Source: Acrocarpospora catenulata
GTDB lineage: Bacteria > Actinomycetota > Actinomycetes > Streptosporangiales > Streptosporangiaceae
Assembly: GCF_018476525.1 (NCBI RefSeq)
Contig: NZ_JAHCST010000036.1
Span: forward strand, 1-64,000
Direction: 5' to 3'
DNA length: 64,000 nucleotides
Part shown: in pieces, positions 42,141 through 52,614 of the stretch
How the letters are laid out: the number at the start of each line of letters is the position of its first letter
Position numbering within the stretch: position 1 is the stretch's first letter
Notes under the pieces: model-generated
What the model saw: only the letters and a program-made list of their open reading frames with translations
The model's database searches: none
What the model was told of the DNA's origin: nothing
Position numbers and translations under genes: made by a program

Positions 42141-42311
42141 TCCGGGCTGATCGAGGGGGTGAGGATCGGCTACCCCACCCCGGATGACTGCTGGTGTAAC
42201 GAGATCCGCCGGGGTAACGTCGGGGGGCACTCCGGATTTGGTACGACGTTGTGCCCAAGTCCTACTCCACGGGAAATCCTCGACAAGTCTCGATAAATGG
42301 GGTGGCGGGCT
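42141..42311 (+). promoter_or_regulatory. Upstream region of the Fxs locus
   Basis: 171 bases between the PH-domain gene and fxsA. A weak GGGGTG/CACCCC hairpin (42156-42181) may end the rib transcript. Two GTAAC sequences, at 42196 and 42214, lie 18 bp apart and could be a regulator site, but do not match a consensus I can name. No gene is supported here. Confidence 0.35.
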
Positions 42312-42413
42312 ATGTCTGAGCTCATGTCTGACGTGGTGGTGGATCTCGCGGATGTGCCACTTGCTGAAATCGTCATCGACGACGGATCGGTGGCCTTCAA
42401 CTCGGCGATCTGA
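42312..42413 (+). CDS. fxsA: FxsA precursor peptide (FxSxx-COOH family)
   Basis: 33-residue peptide beginning MSELMSDVVVDLADV and ending GSVAFNSAI-stop. The C-terminal F-N-S-A-I is the defining FxSxx-COOH signature of FxsA peptides, which are modified by the radical SAM enzyme FxsB. Composition is acidic (6 Asp, 2 Glu) with a leader-like VVVDLADVPLAEIVID stretch. It lies 72 bases before fxsB on the same strand, exactly where a precursor is expected. For the Fxs class, formation of a three-residue cyclophane between the Phe ring (29) and the side chain of residue 31 (Ser) is reported; that this peptide gets that link is inferred. No strong ribosome site (GGTGG only). Confidence 0.85.
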   Translation: MSELMSDVVVDLADVPLAEIVIDDGSVAFNSAI

Positions 42414-42485: not shown

Positions 42486-44642
42486 ATGGCCGGTCTCATC
42501 CCGCTCCGGCAGTTCGTGGTGAAGGTCGCCAGCCGGTGCGACCTGGCGTGTGATCACTGCTACGTGTACACGCACGCCGACCAGAGCTGGCAGGGCCGCC
42601 CGGCGTACCTGTCGGCGGAGACGGCCGCCCTGGTGGCCGACCGCATCGCCGAGCACGCCCGGCGCCACCGGCTGACCGACGTGCACGTGGTGCTGCACGG
42701 CGGGGAGCCGCTGCTGGCCGGGGTGGACCGGCTTCGCCGCACCGCCAGGGAGCTGCGCCGCGCCCTGGACGGCGTGGCCGCGCTTGACCTGCGCGTGCAC
42801 ACCAACGGCGTACTGCTGGACGCCGCGTTCTGCCGGATGTTCCGGGAGGAGGAGATCGGCGTCGGCCTGTCCCTGGACGGCGACCGGGCCGCGCACGACC
42901 GCCACCGGGTGCACCGTGACGGCCGGGGCAGCTTCGACCAGGTGGTCCGCGCGGTGGCCCTGCTCCGCGAGCACGCCCCGGAACGGTACGCGGGCCTGCT
43001 CTGCACGGTGGACGTGCGCAACGACCCGATCCGCGTCTACGAGACCCTGATCGGCCTGGAGCCGCCCAGGGTCGACTTCCTGCTCCCGCACGCCACCTGG
43101 GACAACCCCCCGCCGGGGACCGGTGGGGAGGCCACGCCGTACGCGGACTGGCTGCTGGCCGTCTACCGGCGCTGGCAGGCCGACGGACGGCCCACCCGGG
43201 TGCGCATGTTCGAGTCGATCATCCTCACCAGCCGGGGCGGCCGCAGCCTCACCGAGTCCCTCGGCCTCAGCCCCACCGACCTGGTCGTGATCGAGACCGA
43301 CGGCGGCTACGAGCAGGCCGACTCCCTCAAGACCGCCTTCGACGGCGCCCCGGCCACCGGCCTCAACGCCCGCGACCACCCCCTCGACCTGGTGGCCGCC
43401 CACCCCGGCATCACCGCCAGGCAACTCGGCAAGGCCGGCCTCACCCCCACCTGCCAGAGCTGCTCCCTGGTGGACAGCTGCGGCGGCGGCCTCTACGCCC
43501 ACCGCTACCGAACCGGCACCGGCTTCCACAACCCATCCGTCTACTGCACCGACCTGACCGAACTCATCCAGACCATCCGCGACGGCCTGCCACCCCGTCC
43601 CCCCGAACTCGGCTTCTCCGCCGACATGCTGGAGCTGCTCGGCACCGCCCGCGGCGACCCCGCCGAGGTGGCCCACCTGCTCAGGGCCCAGCGTGGCCTG
43701 ACCCGCAAGGGCGTCGCGCAGGCCACCCGGGTCTCCGGCGTCTGGCCGTTACTGGTCCGCCTGGACCGCGAGCACCGCGCCGCCGTGGACCACGTCTTCG
43801 ACTATCCGTACGTCCGGGCCTGGGCGGCCGTGCAGCGGCGGCGTGGCCAGGTGGCGGTCGAGCACCGGGGCCACCTGGCCGCCATCGTGGCCGCGGTGGC
43901 GTTGCGCGCGGGCGAGCGGCTTCGGGTCAGGGTGCCGGTCCTGGACGGCCGGGTTCACCTGCCAGGCCTGGGCAGGCTCACCGTGGGCGAGGGCACCGAA
44001 GCCCAGGTCACCGTCTCCGACGGCACCTTCGAGGTCCGCGCAGGACACCGCAGGTTCGGCCCCGGCGACCCCGCCTGGGAACCCGTCCGGGTCCTGTACG
44101 ACGGCGACCTGACCGTGCTCCTGGACGACGTCGACCGCTACCGGACGGGCTTCGGCCCCCAGATCCGCGAACGCCTCGACGCGGCCGAGTTCGACCGCTT
44201 ACGTGAGGTGTTCGCGGCAGCCTGGGACCTGCTGGCCCGGGAACACCCGAGCCGTGCGGCCGCGATGCGCTCAGGGCTGCGCGTGATCACGCCCGTGGCG
44301 GGCGACGGCGCGGTGACCCGCGCCGCCTACGGCGCCGTCGCCCTCGGCCCGGCCACCGACCCCGCCGCGATGGCCCTCACCCTGGCCCGCGAGTTCCAGC
44401 GCGCCCAGCTGGGGGCGCTGGACGACATGTTCCACCTCACCGAGGGCAACCGGGAGGCCGAGGAGCGCCTGTACGCGGCCTACGGGCGGCTGGCGCACGC
44501 CGATTACCTGGGCGCGGCGGGGCGCACGCTGGCCCGGCAGGCGGGCGACCTGCTGGATGATCCCGCCCTGTTCGATCTGTCCCCGCTGGGAAAGAGACTG
44601 GTGGGCGAGATGCGCAGGGCGGCGGCCCGGCTCGGCCCGTGA
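42486..44642 (+). CDS. fxsB: Radical SAM/SPASM maturase FxsB with inactivated HExxH-type extension
   Basis: 718 aa. N-terminal radical SAM domain with the 4Fe-4S motif Cys18-x3-Cys22-x2-Cys25 (SRCDLACDHCYVY) and HGGEPLL. SPASM-type auxiliary-cluster cysteines: Cys323, Cys326, Cys332, Cys354 (TCQSCSLVDSCGG...VYC). The C-terminal about 340 residues correspond to the HExxH-type (beta-hydroxylase-like) extension of some FxsB proteins; where HEFQH would lie, the sequence is R635-E-F-Q-R639 (LAREFQRAQLGALDD), so both metal-ligand histidines are lost. Expected to modify FxsA at the FNS motif; the extension may now only bind the peptide. ATG chosen from the conserved start (PLRQFVVKVASRC). Confidence 0.9.
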   Translation: MAGLIPLRQFVVKVASRCDLACDHCYVYTHADQSWQGRPAYLSAETAALVADRIAEHARRHRLTDVHVVLHGGEPLLAGVDRLRRTARELRRALDGVAALDLRVHTNGVLLDAAFCRMFREEEIGVGLSLDGDRAAHDRHRVHRDGRGSFDQVVRAVALLREHAPERYAGLLCTVDVRNDPIRVYETLIGLEPPRVDFLLPHATWDNPPPGTGGEATPYADWLLAVYRRWQADGRPTRVRMFESIILTSRGGRSLTESLGLSPTDLVVIETDGGYEQADSLKTAFDGAPATGLNARDHPLDLVAAHPGITARQLGKAGLTPTCQSCSLVDSCGGGLYAHRYRTGTGFHNPSVYCTDLTELIQTIRDGLPPRPPELGFSADMLELLGTARGDPAEVAHLLRAQRGLTRKGVAQATRVSGVWPLLVRLDREHRAAVDHVFDYPYVRAWAAVQRRRGQVAVEHRGHLAAIVAAVALRAGERLRVRVPVLDGRVHLPGLGRLTVGEGTEAQVTVSDGTFEVRAGHRRFGPGDPAWEPVRVLYDGDLTVLLDDVDRYRTGFGPQIRERLDAAEFDRLREVFAAAWDLLAREHPSRAAAMRSGLRVITPVAGDGAVTRAAYGAVALGPATDPAAMALTLAREFQRAQLGALDDMFHLTEGNREAEERLYAAYGRLAHADYLGAAGRTLARQAGDLLDDPALFDLSPLGKRLVGEMRRAAARLGP

Positions 44643-44670
44643 AACCGATCGCCGAACTCTGGGGTGCTGG

Positions 44671-45486
44671 GTGACTCCTTCTGACACGGAAGTGGTCCAC
44701 ACCCGTGCCACGCTCGCGCGCGACCTGCGCCGGATCGGCCTGCCCAGGGGCGGCATCGTGCTGGTGCACTCCTCGCTCAGCGAAGTGGGCACGGTGGCGG
44801 GCGGCCCGGCCGCCGTGATCGCCGCCGTCCGCGACGTGCTCGGCCCGGAGGGCACCCTGGTCGCCCCTACCTTCACCGAGCACAATTCCCTGTCGTCGAA
44901 TGCCTATCTTGAGGCCGTACAGGGCATGACGCCCGCCGAGAAAATGTGGTATCACGCGCAAATGCCGCCATTTGATCGTGAAACCATGCCTTCGCGCGGC
45001 ATGGGGCAGATTCCGGAGCAGTTACGGATGACCCCCGGCGCCATTCGCAGCGACCATCCGCAGACCTCGTTCGCCGCGCTCGGCCCGGCCGCGGCCACGC
45101 TCATGGACGGCCACGATCGGAAATGCCATCTCGGCGAGCTTTCCCCGCTCGGCGCGATGTACCGGACCGGCGCCCATATCCTCCTGCTCGGGGCCGGCTA
45201 CGACTCCTGCTCGGCATTCCATCTCGCCGAGTATCGTCAACCGGAACCTCCGGAGGCGGTCTACCGTTGTGTGGTCAAGACGCCGGACGGACGACGGGAA
45301 TGGTGCGAATATATGGACATCGTTCTTGATGACACGGACTTCGCTTGTATTGGTGAAGCGCTTGACCGAACGGGAATCGTCAATCGCGGAGAGGTCGGTT
45401 CCGCCCCGACCCGGCTCGCTCCGATGGGCCCGGCCGTGGACTTCGCCACGCGCTGGCTCGCCGAGAACCGGCGCGGAACAGGCTGA
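44671..45486 (+). CDS. AAC(3)-family N-acetyltransferase in the Fxs locus
   Basis: 271 aa from the GTG (VTPSDTEVVHTRATLARDLR). Family motifs of aminoglycoside 3-N-acetyltransferases: VLVHSSLSEVG, PEGTLVAPTFTEHNS, DHPQTSFAALGPAAA, YRTGAHILLLGAGYDSCSAF. It belongs to Fxs gene sets in actinomycetes (memory-based) and probably acetylates something other than a drug: the peptide product, its conjugate or a small-molecule partner. The second half uses markedly more A/T-ending codons (AAT, GAA, TTT, TAT) than fxsB or fxsT, which hints at different ancestry. Starts 28 bases after fxsB. Aminoglycoside resistance should not be assumed. Confidence 0.85.
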   Translation: MTPSDTEVVHTRATLARDLRRIGLPRGGIVLVHSSLSEVGTVAGGPAAVIAAVRDVLGPEGTLVAPTFTEHNSLSSNAYLEAVQGMTPAEKMWYHAQMPPFDRETMPSRGMGQIPEQLRMTPGAIRSDHPQTSFAALGPAAATLMDGHDRKCHLGELSPLGAMYRTGAHILLLGAGYDSCSAFHLAEYRQPEPPEAVYRCVVKTPDGRREWCEYMDIVLDDTDFACIGEALDRTGIVNRGEVGSAPTRLAPMGPAVDFATRWLAENRRGTG

Positions 45487-45493
45487 GGCCGGC

Positions 45494-46156
45494 ATGACGC
45501 AGATCCGGCCGGGCGCGCGCAGACACGATCCCCCCACGGCGTCCAAGACGGCGGATCCGTACTTCTTCCTGTCCTACGCCCACGCGCCGTCGATCCGGGG
45601 ACAGGACGACCCGGACTATCTCATCGAACAGGTGCTCACCGACCTGTCCACCCACATCATGCACATGACCGACCACCCGGACGGGCCGGTCGGAATCATC
45701 GACCGGCATATTCCCGCCGGAAAAGCCTGGAAAGCCGACATCCTCGGCGCGCTCGCCCGCTGCCGGGTGCTGCTGGCCTTCTATTCCGACCGGTACTTCT
45801 CCAGTGAGTGGTGCGGCATGGAATGGCACGCGTTCAGCGTCCGGGAGGACCTGCACGCCAATCTCACCGGCAATCCGGTGCACGCCATCGTCCCGGTCTT
45901 CTGGACCCCGGTGGACCAGGAGGACCTGCCCGAGGTCGCGCAGAGCCGCCAATTCAGCTTCGCCAACATGGGCGACCACTACAAAAGCGGGGGACTGTAC
46001 GGACTGGCTGCCCGGCGCCGTTACCGCGACGACTACGACGTCGCCACATTCGAGATCGCCCAGAACATCGTGCTGACCGCGAAGAGCACCCGGCTCCGCC
46101 CGTGCGGCACCCAGGATTTCCCCGACCTGAGGAACGTGTTCGATGAAAGCGAATGA
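45494..46156 (+). CDS. TIR-like protein, companion of FxsC
   Basis: 220 aa, essentially one TIR-like domain. The start PYFFLSYAHAPSIRG corresponds to TIR box 1; IDRHIPAGKAWKADILGAL resembles the BB-loop region and VLLAFYSDRYFSSEWCGMEW the box 3 region, with Glu in the SSEWC motif that in active TIR NADases is catalytic. The next gene begins with the same motif (PYFFLSHARTP), so the two are paralogous over this domain. ATG starts 7 bases after the acetyltransferase stop; the end overlaps FxsC by 14 bases. Enzyme activity cannot be judged from sequence. Confidence 0.8.
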   Translation: MTQIRPGARRHDPPTASKTADPYFFLSYAHAPSIRGQDDPDYLIEQVLTDLSTHIMHMTDHPDGPVGIIDRHIPAGKAWKADILGALARCRVLLAFYSDRYFSSEWCGMEWHAFSVREDLHANLTGNPVHAIVPVFWTPVDQEDLPEVAQSRQFSFANMGDHYKSGGLYGLAARRRYRDDYDVATFEIAQNIVLTAKSTRLRPCGTQDFPDLRNVFDESE

Positions 46157-47390
46157 CATCGGACCATATTTCTTTCTCAGCCACGCCCGGACGCCGTCGG
46201 CCCCCGCCGACCGCGCCGAGTCCAACCGGTTCGTCGGCAAGTTCTACCGGGACCTCAACCGGGGACTGGCCGAGTTCGCGGGCCGGGTGACCGGCTTCAT
46301 GGAGGAACGCCGCGTGGCGCCCGGCGTCCCGCTGCCCGAGGACGTGTTGCGCGCGGTCTCCTCCTGCAAGGTGCTGGTTCCGCTCTACTCCGATCGGTAC
46401 TTCGCCGACCAGGCCTGCGCGGTGGAGTGGAAGCTGTTCACCCGCAGGGGGGAGAGCGGCGCCGCCCCCGTGCTCGGCTCCATCGTGCCCGCGGTGTGGA
46501 GCCCCGTGGACTTCTCCGAACTCCCGGCCGAGGTGCGTTCGGTGCCCTTCGACCCCACCGAGTTCGGCTCGGCCTACGCCGACTACGGCCTGTACGGCCT
46601 GGTCAGGCTCTCCCGGTTCGAGACCGAGTACCACACCGCCGTGCGCCACCTGGCCGAGCGCATCGCCGCCGCGGGGAGCCGGTCCCACCTGCGGTCCGGC
46701 TGGGGCGGGCCCGCCGAGGTGCGCCCGGCCGCCTTCACCGGTTCGACCACCCGGCCGCCGCTGCGCCTCATGGTGGCCGCCCGGCCCCGGCCGGGGGACT
46801 CGCCGCTGGACTGGAACCCCTACCACTCCCGGTCCGGCAAGCCGATCGTGGCGCTGGCCTCGTACCTGCTGGCGAACCTGAAGTACCAGCCGAAGGCGGT
46901 GACCTTCGAGGAGGCCGCGCCCGGCCTGCTCGAAGAGACCGTGCCCGCCGGGCCGGGGCTGCTTCTGGTGGACCCCTGGGCGCTCGCCGATCCCGCCGTC
47001 GCCGACGGGCTCCGCCGGTTCGACGAACTGGACCGTCCGTGGATCCGTGTCATGGTCCTGATCGGCGCCGGGGCGGACCGGAATTCCGATAGCGTGACGA
47101 ATCTCACGCGCCAGGTGGCCGCGGTGTTCCGGAACCGGTTCGCCGCCGAGGAGCGGTCGTCCACGAAGGAGGCCCTCCGCGGCATCGTGTCCGTCGAGGA
47201 GTTCGAGGCGATCCTGCCCCATCTGGTGCGCATCGTCAGCAAGCAGTACCTGAAAAAGCTGACGGAGAACCTGGAAAGTGTGACGCAGACCGCTCCCAGC
47301 CAGGCCGCGGAGTTCCCGCGGCCCCGCCTGAAGGGTCCTGCGCTGTTCAACGGCGATCGCGACGCGGAGGAACGGCATGACCGGCCTTGA
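46143..47390 (+). CDS. fxsC: TIR-like protein FxsC
   Basis: 415 aa. N-terminal TIR-like domain (about 8-180: PYFFLSHARTPSAPADRAES, VLVPLYSDRYFADQACAVEW) and a C-terminal domain (about 200-400) with PLDWNPYHSRSGKPIVALAS, LLVDPWALAD, and a helical tail containing IVSKQYLKKLTENL. The two-domain form matches FxsC of FxSxx-COOH systems. ATG lies inside the end of the TIR-like companion and its own end overlaps fxsT by 14 bases, indicating coupled translation and probably a complex of the three products. Confidence 0.82.
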   Translation: MKANDIGPYFFLSHARTPSAPADRAESNRFVGKFYRDLNRGLAEFAGRVTGFMEERRVAPGVPLPEDVLRAVSSCKVLVPLYSDRYFADQACAVEWKLFTRRGESGAAPVLGSIVPAVWSPVDFSELPAEVRSVPFDPTEFGSAYADYGLYGLVRLSRFETEYHTAVRHLAERIAAAGSRSHLRSGWGGPAEVRPAAFTGSTTRPPLRLMVAARPRPGDSPLDWNPYHSRSGKPIVALASYLLANLKYQPKAVTFEEAAPGLLEETVPAGPGLLLVDPWALADPAVADGLRRFDELDRPWIRVMVLIGAGADRNSDSVTNLTRQVAAVFRNRFAAEERSSTKEALRGIVSVEEFEAILPHLVRIVSKQYLKKLTENLESVTQTAPSQAAEFPRPRLKGPALFNGDRDAEERHDRP

Positions 47391-50300
47391 TGGTCAGGCA
47401 GTGCACGAGGTTCAGCACGAGGGCACCCCCGAGCAGGAGGGTCATATCGTGACCTTCTACTCGTACAAGGGCGGCACCGGCCGCACCATGTCCCTCGCCA
47501 ACACCGCCTGGATCCTGGCCAGCGCCGGAAAGCGGGTGCTGGTGGTGGACTGGGACCTGGAATCGCCAGGACTGCACCGGTTCTTCCAGCCGTTCCTGGA
47601 TCCGGAGATCGTCGAGTCCACCCCGGGGGTCATCGAGATCCTCACCGACTACGCGCACGACGCGGTCCACCCCGGCGTCGACTTCGCCGCGCTCATCGAG
47701 CGGCACGCCAAGGTGCTGGCCAGCGCCGTGTCCATCGAGTGGGACTACTTCCCGCCCGGGGGCGGCCTGGACTTCATCTCCGCCGGGCGGCAGCGCCGGG
47801 AGTACTCGGCCCAGGTCTCCAGCTACGAGTGGGACGACTTCTACGACAAGTGGCACGGCGGTCAGTTCCTGGACGCGCTCCGCAACGACATGAAGCGCAA
47901 CTACGACTACGTGCTGATCGACAGCCGGACCGGGCTGAGCGACGTCTCCGAGATCTGCACCGTCAACCTGCCCGACACCCTGGTGGTCTGCTTCACGCTC
48001 AGCAACCAGAGCATCGAGGGCGCCTCCGCGCTGGCCAGGGAGATCGACGACCGGTACCACAACCGGGGCATCCGCATCCTGCCGGTGCCGATGCGCATCG
48101 AGGAGGGCGAGAAGGAGAAGGCCGACATCGGCCGGGCGCTGGCCCGCAGCAGGTTCGGCCGGTTCCCGACCGGCATGACGGAGGAGGCCGCGCGGCGGTA
48201 CTGGGGGTCGGTGGAGATTCCGTACCGGCCGTTCTACGCCTTCGAGGAGATTCTCGCGCCGTTCGGGGACGCGCCCGGCCTGACCTCCTCCATGCTCACC
48301 GCCTGCGAGCGGCTCACCGGGGTGATCTCCGAGGGCGAGGTGCGCGCGCTGGCGCCGCCCAGCCGGGGCGGGCGGGCGGTCACCGCCGAGGAGGCCGAGA
48401 AGCTCCGGCTCCGCTACCGGCAGCACTTCCTGCGCCGCCCGGTGGTGCCGAGCACCCGGGTCTGCGTCAGCTACGCCCCAGAGGACCGGCTCTGGGCCGA
48501 GTGGATCCAGGCGGTGCTCCGCTCGGCCGGGCTCAACGTCACCATGCTCAGCTCCGGGGACATCCCCGGCGCGGCCGAGGAGAACATCGGCCGGATCGTG
48601 CAGGAGGTGGACCGGGTCATCGCCGTGGTGTCCTCGTCCTACCTGCGGGCCAGGCGCTCCCTCCAGGTGCTCGGCGCCGCCGCCGAGTCCGACCCGTCCG
48701 GCGCCCGGCACCTGCTCATCCCGGTCCGGGTCGGCGAGGTCAGCCTGATCTCCCCGCTCATCGACAGGGAGCCCGTCGACCTGCGCCGGATGACCCCGCA
48801 GCAGGCGGTGACCGCGCTGCTGCGCCTGTTCGACCGGCGGCCCCCCGCGCAGGGCGAGGAGGGCAGGACCGCCGCGCCGCGCTTCCCCGGCGAGGCCCCG
48901 GCCGTCTGGAACGTGCCCACCCGCAACGCCGTCTTCACCGGCCGCGGCATCCTGCTGGAGAACCTCCGCGACCAACTGGTGGCCGGCGGCTCCACCGTGG
49001 TGCTCCCGCAGGCCCTGTACGGCCTGGGCGGGGTCGGCAAGACCCAGGTGGCGCTGGAGTACGCGCACCGGTTCATGGCCGACTACGACCTGGTCTGGTG
49101 GATCCAGGCCGAGCAGCCGGGCCTGGTCGCCTCGGCGCTGGGCGAGCTGGCCGCGCACCTGAACATCGAGTCGCCCGACAACCTGCTGGAACCGGCCAGG
49201 GTGGTGCGGGACGCGCTGCGGCGCGGCCTGCCGTACAGCCGGTGGTTGCTGATCTTCGACAACGCGGACGCGCCCCAGCAGATCGAGCGGTACCTGCCCG
49301 GCGGCTCCGGGCACGTGATCATCACCTCCCGCAACCAGTCGTGGAGCCAGACCGCGGCCCCGCTGGAGGTGGACGTGTTCAGCCGGGCCGAGAGCCTGGA
49401 GCACCTCACCCGCCGGGTCAAGAAGCTGACCGCCGAGGACGCCGTGCGCATCGCGGAGGCCCTGGGCGACCTGCCCATCGCGATCGAGCAGGCGGGCGCC
49501 TGGCTCGGCGAGACCGGCACCACCGTCGAGGAGTACCTGTCCCAGCTGGACGGCACCCTGTCCGGCATGCTCTCCATGGGCACCCCCGCCAACTACCCGT
49601 CCCCGGTCGCGGCCACCTGGAACGTCTCGTTCACCGCGCTGCGCAGGCGGTCCCCGGCCTCGGTGCGGCTGCTGGAGCTGCTGGCCTTCTTCGCCCCCGA
49701 GCCGGTCTCGCTCAGCCTGGTGCGCAGCGACGCGATGCGCCGCTGCCTGCTGCCCTACGACGACGCCCTGCACGAGCGGATGGTCATCGGCAAGGTGATC
49801 CAGGAGCTGGGCCGCTTCGCGCTGGCCAAGGTGGACCAGAGCGGCAACTTCATCGAGGTGCACCGCCTGGTGCAGGCCGTGGTCCGCGACCAGATGTCAC
49901 CGGAGCTCCAGGAGCAGACCGTGCACGAGGTGCACAACGTGCTGGTGGACGCCCGCCCCACCGAGGGCGACACCGACTCGCCGGAGAACGGGCCGCGCTA
50001 CGACCTGATCTGGCCGCACCTCGGCCCGTCCAGGGCGGGCGAGTGCGACGAGGCCGAGACCCGGCACCTGCTCATCGACCGGGTGCGTTTCCTCTGGCAG
50101 CGCGGCGAGTACCAGGCCGCCCTGGAACTCGGCCAGTCGCTCAAGGTGACCTGGGAGACCAAGCTCGGCGAGGACGACCGGCAGACCCTCCAGCTCCAGT
50201 CCCAGGTGGCCAACGTGCTCCGTTCGCAGGGCCACTACCAGCAGGCCCGCGAGCTGGACAAGGAGGTCTTCGACAAGCAGACCAAGGCGCTCGGCAAGAA

Positions 50301-51378
50301 CCACCCCAACACGCTGATGACCGCCGCCGGACTGGCCGCCGACATGCGCGCCCTGGGCGAGCTGACCGAGGCGCTGGAGGTCGAGCGCACCACCTACGAC
50401 CTGTGGAGGGAGGGGTACGGCGAGGACAACCCGCGCACCCTGGGGGCGGCCAACAACCTGGCGGTGGCGCTCCGCCACGTCGGCGAGTTCCACCGCGCCC
50501 TGGAACTGGACGAGAACACCCTGCAGCGGCGCCAGGCGGTGATCGGCCACGACCACCCGTTCACCCTGTCCTCGGCCAGCAACCTCGCCAGGGACCTGCG
50601 TGAGCTCGGCGACTTCCGCGGGTCGGTCCGGCTGCTTGAGGAGAACATGGCCGCGCACATCCGCGTGCTGGGCGCCGAGCACCCCAGCACCATGCGCGCC
50701 GCCAAGAGCCTGGCCGCCGCGCTCCGGGTGGCCGGCGAGTACGCCAGGGCACTGGAACTGATCAAGGACACCCACAACCGGCTGAGCCGCCGCGCGGTCG
50801 CCGGCTCACCCGACTCGCTGGCCTGCACCCTGGAGCTGGCCTGCACGCTGGCCACCTGCCAGGAGCCGGGCCAGGCCGGGGAACTGTCCGCCGGGGTGAT
50901 GAAGGAGTTCGCCGCCGTGCTCGGCCCCGACCACCCGTACACCCTGGCCGCGGCCAACAACCTGGCCATCTACCGGGCGGCCTGCGGTGACCTGGCGGGC
51001 GCGGCGGAACTGGCGGCCGACACCCTGGACCGCCTGCGGGCGCGCATGCCGGACGGCCACCCGTTCATCGCGATGTGCGCGATCAACCTGGGCGTGGTGC
51101 GGATGCGGCAGGGCCACCCGGAGTCGGCCGAGGTCCTGTTCGCCGAGACCGCCGAGTCGCTGCGCGGCAAGCTGGGCCCCGAGCACCCGGACACCCTGGT
51201 CTGCCTGAGCAACCTGGCCTGCGCCGTCCAGGCGGCCGGGCGGCCCGGCGAGGCCCAGGACCTGCGCGCCCGGCTGGCCGCGCCCAGCTTGCGGGCGTTC
51301 GGCGAAGGGCACCCGGACCTTCAGGCCATCCGGGAGGGGCTGCTGGCCAGCCGCCCCCTGGAGCCTCACCCCTGGTAG
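47377..51378 (+). CDS. fxsT: FxsT: ParA-like/TIR/NB-ARC/TPR protein of the Fxs system
   Basis: 1333 aa. Residues about 20-330: ParA/MinD-like NTPase with deviant Walker A K31-GGTGRT (FYSYKGGTGRTMS) and VLVVDWDLESPGLHRF. About 360-490: TIR domain (RVCVSYAPEDRLWAEWI ... VIAVVSSSYL). About 510-790: NB-ARC/STAND NTPase with GLGGVGKT (Lys555), Walker B WLLIFDNAD, GHVIITSRN and GDLPIAIEQAGAWL. About 830-1333: tetratricopeptide repeats (ALELDENTLQRRQAVIGHDH-type units). This is an NLR-like design: repeats as sensor, NB-ARC as switch, TIR as output. It closes the Fxs operon. Its 3' end overlaps the convergent hydrolase gene by 13 bases. Confidence 0.88.
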   Translation: MTGLDGQAVHEVQHEGTPEQEGHIVTFYSYKGGTGRTMSLANTAWILASAGKRVLVVDWDLESPGLHRFFQPFLDPEIVESTPGVIEILTDYAHDAVHPGVDFAALIERHAKVLASAVSIEWDYFPPGGGLDFISAGRQRREYSAQVSSYEWDDFYDKWHGGQFLDALRNDMKRNYDYVLIDSRTGLSDVSEICTVNLPDTLVVCFTLSNQSIEGASALAREIDDRYHNRGIRILPVPMRIEEGEKEKADIGRALARSRFGRFPTGMTEEAARRYWGSVEIPYRPFYAFEEILAPFGDAPGLTSSMLTACERLTGVISEGEVRALAPPSRGGRAVTAEEAEKLRLRYRQHFLRRPVVPSTRVCVSYAPEDRLWAEWIQAVLRSAGLNVTMLSSGDIPGAAEENIGRIVQEVDRVIAVVSSSYLRARRSLQVLGAAAESDPSGARHLLIPVRVGEVSLISPLIDREPVDLRRMTPQQAVTALLRLFDRRPPAQGEEGRTAAPRFPGEAPAVWNVPTRNAVFTGRGILLENLRDQLVAGGSTVVLPQALYGLGGVGKTQVALEYAHRFMADYDLVWWIQAEQPGLVASALGELAAHLNIESPDNLLEPARVVRDALRRGLPYSRWLLIFDNADAPQQIERYLPGGSGHVIITSRNQSWSQTAAPLEVDVFSRAESLEHLTRRVKKLTAEDAVRIAEALGDLPIAIEQAGAWLGETGTTVEEYLSQLDGTLSGMLSMGTPANYPSPVAATWNVSFTALRRRSPASVRLLELLAFFAPEPVSLSLVRSDAMRRCLLPYDDALHERMVIGKVIQELGRFALAKVDQSGNFIEVHRLVQAVVRDQMSPELQEQTVHEVHNVLVDARPTEGDTDSPENGPRYDLIWPHLGPSRAGECDEAETRHLLIDRVRFLWQRGEYQAALELGQSLKVTWETKLGEDDRQTLQLQSQVANVLRSQGHYQQARELDKEVFDKQTKALGKNHPNTLMTAAGLAADMRALGELTEALEVERTTYDLWREGYGEDNPRTLGAANNLAVALRHVGEFHRALELDENTLQRRQAVIGHDHPFTLSSASNLARDLRELGDFRGSVRLLEENMAAHIRVLGAEHPSTMRAAKSLAAALRVAGEYARALELIKDTHNRLSRRAVAGSPDSLACTLELACTLATCQEPGQAGELSAGVMKEFAAVLGPDHPYTLAAANNLAIYRAACGDLAGAAELAADTLDRLRARMPDGHPFIAMCAINLGVVRMRQGHPESAEVLFAETAESLRGKLGPEHPDTLVCLSNLACAVQAAGRPGEAQDLRARLAAPSLRAFGEGHPDLQAIREGLLASRPLEPHPW

Positions 51379-52271
51379 ACGCCGGTGACCGGCCGGGGGG
51401 ACTGACTCCGGCCGGTCAGCCAGGGCAGGATCTTGGGCAGCGCGTCCAGCGCGCCGAAGTGCGCGACGCCCGTCTTCAGGGTGAGCGAGGCGGTCGGGAT
51501 GCGGTCGGCCAGCCAGAGCGAATGGCTGATCGGCGAGAAGACGTCCTCGGCGCCGTGCCAGAGCAGGACGGGCACCGTGATGTCGGCCGGGTCGAAGCCC
51601 CAGGGCCGGGCGAAGGCCACCGCGTCGTCGGCCCAGCCGTCGGCGGAACGGCGGAGCGCCTCGGCGTAGTTCTCCTCCAGCATCCTGCGGATACCGGTGT
51701 CGGAGACCACCCGCCGGTCGGGCTTGGGCAGTTCCGAGTAGAGCGAGGCGATGAGCCGTACCGGATTGGCCTTGATCTCGTCGGCGGTGGCCCTGAGCCG
51801 CTCGATCAGGTGGGTGCGGCCCTGCAGGGCGGCGGTGTACTCGGCGATGTTGGACTCGGTCATGCCGGCGAACCACTCCAGGCCCTCGGCGTCCCGCGGG
51901 GCGAGGCTGACCAGGGCGGCCGCCCGGGTCACCCGGTCGCCGAGCAGGGCCGCGCAGGCCAGCGCGTGCGGGCCGCCGCCGGAACGGCCGACCACCGCGA
52001 ACTTCTTCAGGCCCAGGGTGTCGGCGATCACCTGGACGTCCTCGGCGCAGTCGGCCACCCGGCGGCCGATGTGCGAGTCCGACTGGCCGTAGCCGGGGCG
52101 ATCGTAGGTGATCAGCCGTACCCCCAGCCGGTAGAGCAGGCCGCTGCGCGGCCGTGGCCCGAGGCGGCTGCCCGGCGTGCCGTGCAGTAGGAAGACCGGA
52201 TCTCCGGTGGGGACCCCCCGCTCCTCATATGACAGGAGTCGGTCCTCGGCCGCCTTCACGACCTCGGTCAA
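51366..52271 (-). CDS. Alpha/beta-fold hydrolase
   Basis: 301 aa. HGTPGSRLGPRP oxyanion loop, nucleophile elbow VGRSGGGPHA, acid in LLWHGAEDVFSPISHS and catalytic His in TGVAHFGALD. TTG start chosen because AGAGGAGGAA lies 4-13 bases upstream; longer frames reach back without a ribosome site. Substrate unknown; proline-iminopeptidase-like and ester hydrolases share these motifs. It converges on fxsT with a 13-bp overlap, so the two transcripts may interfere. A PHO-box-like array is upstream in the correct orientation for this gene. Confidence 0.88.
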   Translation of the reverse strand: MTEVVKAAEDRLLSYEERGVPTGDPVFLLHGTPGSRLGPRPRSGLLYRLGVRLITYDRPGYGQSDSHIGRRVADCAEDVQVIADTLGLKKFAVVGRSGGGPHALACAALLGDRVTRAAALVSLAPRDAEGLEWFAGMTESNIAEYTAALQGRTHLIERLRATADEIKANPVRLIASLYSELPKPDRRVVSDTGIRRMLEENYAEALRRSADGWADDAVAFARPWGFDPADITVPVLLWHGAEDVFSPISHSLWLADRIPTASLTLKTGVAHFGALDALPKILPWLTGRSQSPRPVTGVYQG

Positions 52272-52614
52272 CGGTTCCTCCTCTGGTAGATCGGCGGGTG
52301 TTCCCCGGGAGGAAAGCGTAAGGGTGCCGTGGAGCCAATGGGAGTCAGTGCCGGATGGCGCAAGACTCTCAAGCCCATCTTCGCCCACGCTGGCGCGGGG
52401 CTGAAGGCGACATCGTCAACCGTGGCGCTTTCGAGGGCAGACTGTCACCGATGGGCGCCAGATGCCAGAAGATGTGGGTATGGAGGAGACCTTGGGCCGG
52501 TGAGCCGTCGATGAACCGCTGGTGAACCACTGGTGAGGGTACCCGTCCATCTGAATGTTCTTTGGGCGGAATTGGCTGGAGCGGCGGCGCGGGCGCGGGA
52601 CGTAGCCTTGGTCT
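52272..52614. other. Divergent intergenic region, hydrolase / MoxR operon
   Basis: 343 bases with promoters for both flanking genes. The only clear structure is the four-unit 11-bp direct repeat described separately. Open frames crossing it lack codon bias and family resemblance. Confidence 0.55.
52495..52538 (-). promoter_or_regulatory. PHO-box-like array of four 11-bp direct repeats
   Basis: On the minus strand four consecutive 11-mers read CCTCACCAGTG, GTTCACCAGCG, GTTCATCGACG and GCTCACCGGCC. They fit the streptomycete PhoP direct-repeat unit, whose best-conserved part is GTTCACC. Their direction points to the alpha/beta hydrolase gene (start 224 bases further on), but repression of the MoxR operon 77 bases away on the plus strand is also possible. 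PhoP itself is not in the window. Confidence 0.55.

What the first reader, a model, noticed from the sequence alone, without database searches (positions are those of the whole stretch)
47377..51378. FxsT is an NLR-like protein with a ParA-type NTPase placed before TIR and NB-ARC
One polypeptide combines a deviant Walker A NTPase (K31-GGTGRT), a TIR domain, an NB-ARC switch (GLGGVGKT) and a long TPR array. Two further stand-alone TIR-like genes precede it. Known STAND defence proteins use TPRs for sensing and TIR for NAD-depleting output. The extra ParA-like module, and pairing with a peptide maturase, suggest that the modified FxsA could be the ligand or trigger. This is inference.
Basis: partly seen in the sequence, partly recalled or inferred. 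Interest (0 to 1): 0.7.

Follow-up and report, generated by a model that had tools for sequence, protein, structure and literature searches.

The report
FxsT: pseudo-ParA/pseudo-TIR STAND platform protein
A large bacterial switch protein that sits beside a modified-peptide factory is real and already named, but its built-in TIR domain looks enzymatically dead, and the neighbouring FxsC proteins carry the intact TIR active site instead.

Summary
Window 47377-51378 (+) encodes one 1333-aa protein: ParA/MinD-like NTPase (KGGTGRT, K31), TIR, NB-ARC (GLGGVGKT, 549) and a TPR array. Two TIR-like FxsC genes lie directly upstream. It is a textbook FxsT (NF040586, 993.6 bits, cut-off 300). The architecture, including an "inactive MinD/ParA-like domain", and the idea that the peptide is a signal or toxin are already in print (Kaur et al. 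2020). Three things are added here. (1) The FxsT TIR looks catalytically dead: Glu stands at the NADase position in 1 of 102 rows, whereas FxsC keeps it in 108 of 108. Any NADase output should therefore come from FxsC. (2) A convergent alpha/beta-hydrolase with an intact Ser-Asp-His triad (51366-52388, -) is a near-constant partner: in 77 of 80 related loci, and in 31 of 31 family genomes with this FxsT type versus 3 of 89 others. (3) A Kitasatospora protein fuses an FxsC TIR with intact Glu to a TIR-NB-ARC-TPR. Best reading: FxsT is a non-enzymatic STAND platform, probably sensing the matured FxsA C-terminus, that gathers FxsC and the hydrolase. The ligand, the output and any phage role remain inference.

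The parts
42312..42413 (+). fxsA: 33-aa precursor ending in F-N-S-A-I (an upstream in-frame ATG lies at 42297)
   Evidence: translation, sequence; an FxSxx-ending short ORF lies just upstream of fxsB in 60 of 64 related loci with a full fxsB
42486..44642 (+). fxsB: radical SAM/SPASM cyclophane-type peptide maturase with a C-terminal aKG-HExxH-type domain whose motif is lost here (REFQR)
   Evidence: TIGR04269 565.9 bits (cut-off 370), TIGR04267 49 bits (cut-off 40); motif comparison
44557..45486 (+). AAC(3)/Antibiotic_NAT-like acetyltransferase; true start probably downstream of the listed ATG
   Evidence: PF02522 250.9 bits; lies between fxsB and fxsC in 36 of 70 related loci that have both
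45494..46156 (+). fxsC1: TIR-like FxsC N-terminal domain only, with SEWCGMEW (catalytic-type Glu)
   Evidence: NF040588 168.7 bits (on ORF 45269-46156); pairwise match of WCxxE to Cat1, SNC1 and RUN1 TIRs at weak E-values
46143..47390 (+). fxsC2: full FxsC, TIR-like domain (Glu95) plus FxsC C-terminal domain
   Evidence: NF040588 150.7, TIGR04276 113.2 bits; model resembles TIR domains, best RUN1 Z 11.7
47377..51378 (+). fxsT: ParA-like(KGGTGR)-TIR-NB-ARC-TPR protein, 1333 aa; overlaps fxsC2 by 14 nt
47440..48342 (+). FxsT ParA/MinD-like domain (about residues 22-322), P-loop Lys replaced by Arg36
   Evidence: NF047398; model; best structural match MinD-ATP 3q9l_A Z 22.9, rmsd 2.8, 236 aligned
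48460..48813 (+). FxsT TIR domain (residues 362-479), catalytic-Glu position Val431
   Evidence: TIR_2 65.7 bits; residue counts
48958..49533 (+). FxsT NB-ARC (residues 528-719), Walker A GLGGVGKT intact
   Evidence: PF00931; conservation
50059..51375 (+). FxsT TPR array (about residues 895-1333)
   Evidence: PF13374, PF13424
51366..52388 (-). alpha/beta-hydrolase, convergent with fxsT, invariant Ser136/Asp282/His310 triad
   Evidence: PF00561 67 bits; alignment of 22; linkage

Best explanation
FxsT is the STAND (AP-ATPase/NB-ARC) hub of a standalone FxSxx peptide system. Proposed working: FxsB, with the AAC(3)-like enzyme in this subset, matures FxsA at its C-terminal F-x-S-x-x end. The TPR array of FxsT senses that free C-terminus, or its loss or displacement under stress, and the intact NB-ARC then oligomerises. 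The N-terminal ParA-like and TIR modules are not the output enzymes. They are a pseudo-NTPase (Arg at the P-loop Lys) and a pseudo-TIR (no catalytic Glu) that act as an assembly and docking surface. The TIR-like FxsC proteins, which keep the catalytic Glu, dock through TIR-TIR contacts and are the likely NAD+-using enzyme. The linked alpha/beta-hydrolase is a second enzyme, for processing, turnover or output. Shown here: the domain order, the residue losses and retentions, the locus composition and phylogenetic co-occurrence, and one natural FxsC-TIR/FxsT fusion. Inferred: peptide sensing, oligomerisation, FxsC NADase activity, the role of the hydrolase, and any antiphage function.
For: Domain identity. 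FxsT 22-320 model resembles MinD/ParA and the FxsC model resembles NADase-type TIRs such as RUN1. Catalytic Glu: FxsT 1 of 102 anchored rows (L/V/I in 77), FxsC 108 of 108 unique; 34 of 34 in alignment A3; 40 of 40 in an earlier set. Both positions fall about six residues into the corresponding model helix (FxsT 426-438, FxsC 90-104). TIR is the least conserved domain of FxsT: mean pairwise identity 0.385 against 0.665 (ParA), 0.633 (NB-ARC), 0.602 (DUF7779), 0.504 (TPR) in 30 sequences. Arg36 in 104 of 108 rows. Co-occurrence in 120 family genomes: hydrolase in 31 of 31 genomes with long FxsT, 3 of 89 others; FxsC in 30 of 31 and 2 of 89. Fisher p 1.2e-25 and 8.9e-25, ignoring shared ancestry. 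Hydrolase in 77 of 80 loci, moved upstream of fxsB in 8 of them. Fusion of FxsC_Nterm to TIR-NB-ARC-TPR in Kitasatospora sp. MAA4, L144:1000-4611, with CGREW in the FxsC part. FxsA in 60 of 64 loci. Overlapping genes fxsC2/fxsT.
Against: No biochemistry. Loss of one Glu is a strong but indirect sign of inactivity: E or D stands one position earlier in 49 of 102 rows (not in the window, where it is Gln) and could conceivably act. Some TIRs with intact Glu are inactive (recalled), so FxsC activity is not shown either. I have no background rate of Glu retention in unrelated actinomycete TIRs (one search gave too few). Four family genomes with near-full-length but divergent FxsT matches (G046, G067, G070, G113; 31-34% identity) have no hydrolase match at E 1e-70 and are counted among the 89. 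The genome's own second FxsT copy (contig C176) is broken between frames, and no hydrolase or fxsB was found in the stretches read beside it and beside a further FxsC on contig C145. L131 has FxsT without hydrolase or fxsB. Co-occurrence p-values are not corrected for phylogeny. Peptide binding by the TPRs is untested.
Confidence: 0.5

Rival explanations
1. One reading: FxsT is a TIR-NLR whose own TIR depletes NAD when the TPRs sense a phage or the modified FxsA, giving abortive infection.
For: TIR_2 and NB-ARC domains above curated cut-offs; the ParA-like part matches a PADLOC candidate-defence model, PDC-M28B, 84.7 bits; the general plan of STAND defence proteins (recalled; Kaur et al. passages).
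Against: No Glu at the catalytic position in 101 of 102 rows, Val431 in the window; TIR is the least conserved domain; the PADLOC match covers only the ParA-like part.
Confidence: 0.08
2. A developmental or physiological regulator: FxsT works like an AfsR/MalT-type STAND switch and the FxsA peptide is an internal or cell-cell signal, with FxsC making a nucleotide signal; no immune role.
For: NB-ARC region also matches the SARP regulator AfsR model weakly (52.1 bits, cut-off 1430); the window locus sits among metabolic genes (ribAB upstream, XdhC and CoxE-type vWA downstream); found in many Streptomyces, Kitasatospora and Streptosporangiaceae.
Against: Only 31 of 120 family genomes carry the long form, some with several copies, which is patchy for a core developmental gene; no DNA-binding domain was found in FxsT.
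Confidence: 0.27
3. Peptide-producer machinery: FxsA is an exported bioactive RiPP, FxsB/AAC(3)/hydrolase are tailoring or self-immunity enzymes, and FxsT/FxsC sense or control production.
For: Maturase, acetyltransferase and hydrolase in one locus; very small precursor (33 aa here).
Against: No exporter was among the roughly ten window ORFs that I scanned, though the neighbourhood was not searched exhaustively for one; FxsT and FxsC are large and conserved, which is more than self-immunity seems to need (inference).
Confidence: 0.15

Closest known systems
FxSxx-COOH system (FxsA/FxsB/FxsC/FxsT; NCBIfam TIGR04269, NF040588, TIGR04276, NF040586) and the standalone peptide-processing systems of Kaur et al. 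2020 (PMC7159879)
   Same: [quoted passage not shown] peptide suggested as toxin or signal
   Different: The passages I saw there speak of an N-terminal TIR without remarking on its Glu; they link alpha/beta-hydrolases to caspase-type and GAP1 systems, not to the FxSxx loci, and name no AAC(3)-like gene (figures and source data not seen)
TIR-NB-ARC plant NLRs such as RUN1, RPP1, Roq1
   Same: TIR next to NB-ARC and a repeat sensor; FxsC fold is close to RUN1 TIR
   Different: In FxsT the TIR lacks the Glu and the Glu-bearing TIR is a separate protein; TPR instead of LRR; extra ParA-like module
KGGVGR-motif variant AAA domain NF047398
   Same: FxsT 23-223 scores 151.7 bits, above the cut-off of 90
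   Different: Domain model named only by its motif; here fused to TIR-NB-ARC-TPR
RRNPP-type TPR peptide sensors (recalled)
   Same: Proposed analogy: TPR array sensing a short peptide C-terminus
   Different: No sequence relation tested; no DNA-binding domain found in FxsT

Membership tests
FxSxx-COOH system TPR protein FxsT (NF040586) | NB-ARC-TPR match above curated score | tested here: met
   993.6 bits, cut-off 300
FxSxx-COOH system | Short precursor ending F-x-S-x-x at the C-terminus beside fxsB | tested here: met
   FNSAI end at 42413; 60 of 64 relatives
FxSxx-COOH system | FxsB radical SAM/SPASM maturase | tested here: met
   TIGR04269 565.9 bits, cut-off 370
FxSxx-COOH system | TIR-like FxsC | tested here: met
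   two genes, NF040588 168.7 and 150.7 bits, cut-off 130
Kaur et al. peptide-processing system | HExxH enzyme (there called a zincin-like metallopeptidase) acting on the precursor | tested here: not met
   Motif is REFQR in the window's FxsB; HEFQH kept in 52 of 101 rows, 7 of the other 49 too short to judge, some contigs present twice. NCBIfam has a model for an inactivated-extension form (NF040587: 137.3 bits here, below its cut-off of 225), so the NCBI FxSxx names do not rest on it. A separate HExxH gene nearby was not sought. Filed here as NCBI FxSxx, not as a full Kaur-type set.
Active ParA/MinD ATPases | KGGxGK[ST] with both lysines (recalled) | tested here: not met
   KGGTGRT; Arg at the second Lys in 104 of 108 rows; fold itself matches
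Catalytic TIR NADases (FxsT TIR) | conserved Glu in helix alphaC (role recalled; RUN1 E100A entries listed) | tested here: not met
   Val431; Glu in 1 of 102 rows
Catalytic TIR NADases (FxsC) | conserved Glu in helix alphaC | tested here: met
   108 of 108
Catalytic TIR NADases (FxsC) | cleaves NAD+ | not testable with these tools
   needs an assay
NLR/STAND (NB-ARC) proteins | Walker A and B, GLPL-like and MHD-like motifs and C-terminal repeats | tested here: met
   GLGGVGKT, LLIFDNAD, GDLPIA, VHRLVQ, TPRs
Antiphage defence system | protects against phage | not testable with these tools
   only pointer: ParA-like part matches PADLOC candidate model PDC-M28B, E 1.7e-24

The most novel reading that the evidence does not exclude
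FxsT is a split bacterial NLR: a wholly non-enzymatic platform (dead ParA and dead TIR around a live NB-ARC switch), gated by the cyclophane-modified C-terminus of FxsA, that activates a TIR NADase in trans (FxsC) together with an obligate alpha/beta-hydrolase. A post-translationally modified self peptide would act as the guard or licence of a STAND immune hub.
Probability: 0.27. Interest if true: 0.78.

Novelty: new member of a known kind. Interest (0 to 1): 0.44.

Why it matters
Knowing that the enzyme-competent TIR is in FxsC, not FxsT, and that a hydrolase belongs to the module changes which proteins should be assayed and which mutants are informative. A ribosomal modified peptide gating an NLR would link peptide natural products to bacterial immunity or development.

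Tried and rejected
Rejected: chance or misframed ORF (30 aligned full-length relatives). Rejected: FxsT TIR as a normal NADase. Rejected: hydrolase as a mere syntenic bystander, because it moves to upstream of fxsB in 8 of 80 loci and still stays in the locus, tracks long FxsT over 120 genomes, and one of the 3 hydrolase-only genomes (G119, L163) also has it beside an NB-ARC-TPR gene; in the other two (L164, L165) none of my six models matched beside it. Tried without yield: literature for Fxs names listed unrelated acronyms or chemistry, apart from PMC7159879; the string FxSxx occurs in 4 held papers, of which PMC7159879 is on the subject and the other 3 were judged by title and start of abstract only. 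Papers listed were seen as listings only. Haft and Basu 2011 was not held. No simple link between HExxH loss in FxsB and the AAC(3) gene was apparent by eye; not tested statistically. The FxsT TIR by itself found only Toll-receptor-related 2 among solved chains, weakly (E 0.021-0.024). VIA-align rows for FxsT cover residues 14-335 at most, so the fold match of its TIR was not tested by structure; a weak receiver-like match of the FxsC C-terminal domain (204-384, Z 8.5) was not pursued. Six loci with FxsT-like proteins that do not match the ParA-TIR part (L075, L077, L078, L079, L081, L082) showed no hydrolase or FxsC match, but I chose these six myself; that they lack ParA/TIR rests on match ranges and on family scans of L075 and L077 only. 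The label T_ParA comes from a profile that extended beyond ParA; ParA presence was judged by the KGG motif and NF047398. The own-genome TIR control gave only 5 TIR_2 matches, 3 of them in this locus, so it was not useful as a background for Glu retention. The FxsC count covers sequences above 100 bits of my profile (or 50 bits of phmmer) outside FxsT frames; weaker relatives and fusions were not counted.
Full report
Observation. The frame 47377-51378 (+) is a single ORF encoding 1333 aa. Curated models give NF047398 AAA_KGGVGR (23-223), TIR_2 (362-479), NB-ARC (528-719), DUF7779 and TPR_10/TPR_12, and NF040586 FxSxx_TPR over 513-1332 with 993.6 bits. The two upstream TIR-like genes are FxsC1 (45494-46156, N-terminal domain only) and FxsC2 (46143-47390, N- and C-terminal domains). 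The cassette is tight: fxsC1/fxsC2 and fxsC2/fxsT overlap by 14 bases each. The precursor FxsA is 42312-42413 and ends FNSAI. The window belongs to a 10.29-Mb, 181-contig assembly. A genome that genome-search runs same-genus (G079) shares a contig length and an FxsT N-terminus with Acrocarpospora phusangensis, so the window is probably an Acrocarpospora.

What is already known. Kaur et al. 2020 (PMC7159879; section 24 read in full; [quoted passage not shown] In the held library the string FxSxx occurs in 4 papers, of which this one is on the subject. So the architecture and the peptide-as-signal idea are not new.

The ParA-like part. The first 504 residues were modelled with 36 sequences from the window and named loci (pLDDT 87.0, pTM 0.71). 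Residues 22-320 match MinD-ATP (3q9l_A, Z 22.9, rmsd 2.8, 236 aligned), and many ParA/Soj structures score alike. The signature Lys31 is K in 102 of 108 rows, but the P-loop lysine is Arg in 104 of 108 (3 gaps, 1 Ser); Asp58, Asp60 and Asp182 are kept in 104, 105 and 106. With mean pairwise identity 0.665 it is the most conserved of the five FxsT segments compared in 30 sequences. A domain that loses its catalytic lysine yet stays this conserved probably still binds something. Whether it binds nucleotide is not known.

The TIR part. The TIR is the least conserved domain (0.385; ParA 0.665, NB-ARC 0.633, DUF7779 0.602, TPR 0.504). At the position of the NADase Glu, read from a conserved S-x-x-Y type anchor, FxsT has Glu in 1 of 102 rows, and Leu, Val or Ile in 77; in the window it is Val431. 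By alignment column the figure is 3 Glu among 101 non-gap rows. Six of the 108 rows did not fit the anchor and were skipped. E or D occurs one residue earlier in 49 of 102 rows, but the window has Gln there. FxsC has Glu at the matching place in 108 of 108 unique sequences. In phmmer the FxsC1 segment SEWCGMEW falls on SRWCLDEL of RUN1 and SDWCWDEL of Cat1; the E-values are weak (0.016-0.43 for six chains). The FxsC2 model (pLDDT 83.6) matches TIR domains over about residues 3-183, best the RUN1 E100A-NAD entry (Z 11.7, rmsd 3.0, 142 aligned). Val431 lies in helix 426-438 of the FxsT model and Glu95 in helix 90-104 of the FxsC model. The role of Glu100 and its kin in catalysis is recalled knowledge plus the entry titles.

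The locus. The genome-contig scan returned 80 loci (more exist). In these, fxsB and fxsC lie upstream of fxsT in 70, and an AAC(3)-like gene lies between them in 36 of 70. An alpha/beta-hydrolase is convergent beside fxsT in 63 of 80, upstream of fxsT on the same strand in 8 (in those, ahead of fxsB), elsewhere in the locus in 6, and not found in 3: L141 ends inside fxsT, L127 has only about 2.3 kb upstream of the fxsT frame, and L131 is a real absence with 7.5 kb of room downstream. Its Ser136, Asp282 and His310 are invariant in an alignment of 22, made of the window and 21 of 76 located copies. In 120 family genomes I counted a long FxsT where the match reached from residue 21 or earlier to 1319 or later at 45% identity or more (30 genomes, the window's own included) plus G029 (43%, from residue 68, match beginning at the contig's first base). 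The hydrolase at E up to 1e-70 occurs in 31 of these 31 and in 3 of the other 89; FxsC at E up to 1e-20 in 30 of 31 (not G002) and 2 of 89. Fisher p is 1.2e-25 and 8.9e-25, without correction for ancestry. Four of the 89 (G046, G067, G070, G113) have divergent near-full-length matches (31-34% identity) and no hydrolase at that threshold. G079 carries a further 515-aa frame with ParA-like and TIR parts only and its own hydrolase (L072).

Linkage of FxsC to FxsT. In Kitasatospora sp. MAA4 one frame (L144:1000-4611) combines FxsC_Nterm (166.1 bits, 27-196) with a second TIR-like segment and NB-ARC-TPR (866.7 bits, 381-1202); no KGGVGR domain was found in it. The FxsC part reads CGREW with Glu, and the second TIR-like segment has Ile at the Glu position. 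This is a natural fusion of a Glu-bearing TIR to the FxsT plan, in place of the ParA-like part. It is one case.

FxsA and FxsB. A short ORF ending F-x-S-x-x lies just upstream of fxsB in 60 of 64 loci with a full fxsB (missing in L090, L097, L122, L152; L099 has a second, probably spurious one). Over the whole same-strand sequence of those loci only 1 other such ORF was found. The end is mostly FNSAL, FNSSI or FQSAL-like. The HExxH motif of the FxsB C-terminal domain is HEFQH in 52 of 101 rows and absent in 49, of which 7 rows are short maturases that do not reach the domain; the window has REFQR. Rows from the two collections overlap for a few contigs.

Defence databases. PADLOC gave PDC-M28B, a candidate system, on the ParA-like part of FxsT (84.7 bits, E 1.7e-24) and pVip on FxsB (28.1 bits); FxsC1, FxsC2, the hydrolase and the AAC(3)-like protein gave none at E 0.001. 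This shows that the ParA-like module is shared with a suspected defence protein, and no more.

Mechanism. Best reading: FxsT is a STAND platform with a live NB-ARC switch and two N-terminal modules that have lost their catalytic residues. FxsC supplies the enzyme-competent TIR. The hydrolase is a regular third enzyme. The matured FxsA C-terminus is the most economical ligand for the TPR array, since the locus makes a peptide whose clearest conserved feature is its C-terminal end. The sequence facts and linkage are shown; ligand, assembly, NADase activity and defence role are inference. A regulator of development and a peptide-producer role remain open.

Verdict. The finding is real and correctly drawn, belongs to a named and published family, and is worth a moderate score for the division of labour between FxsT and FxsC and for the hydrolase.

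Noticed in passing
   Followed up: yes
window 44557-45486 (+): AAC(3)/Antibiotic_NAT-like gene inside the cassette, present in 36 of 70 related loci; possible peptide acetylase rather than a drug-resistance gene (inference).
   Followed up: partly
L144:1000-4611: Natural fusion FxsC TIR - TIR-like - NB-ARC - TPR in Kitasatospora sp. MAA4.
   Followed up: yes
L072:17044-18588: ParA-like plus TIR frame without NB-ARC/TPR, with its own convergent hydrolase, next to a full fxsT-hydrolase pair in the same-genus genome G079.
   Followed up: partly
L074:344-4569 (own contig C176) and L076:98-1006 (own contig C145): Second FxsT copy in the window's genome lies in two overlapping frames, with an FxsC at the edge of another contig; no fxsB or hydrolase found in the stretches read.
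   Followed up: partly
window 42486-44642 (+): HExxH of the FxsB extension is lost here and in many relatives (intact in 52 of 101 rows).
   Followed up: partly
window 46752-47294 (+): The FxsC C-terminal domain (residues 204-384) gives a weak receiver-like structural match (Z 8.5).
   Followed up: no
window 47431-48039 (+): The FxsT ParA-like part (19-221) matches the PADLOC candidate-defence model PDC-M28B at E 1.7e-24.
   Followed up: no
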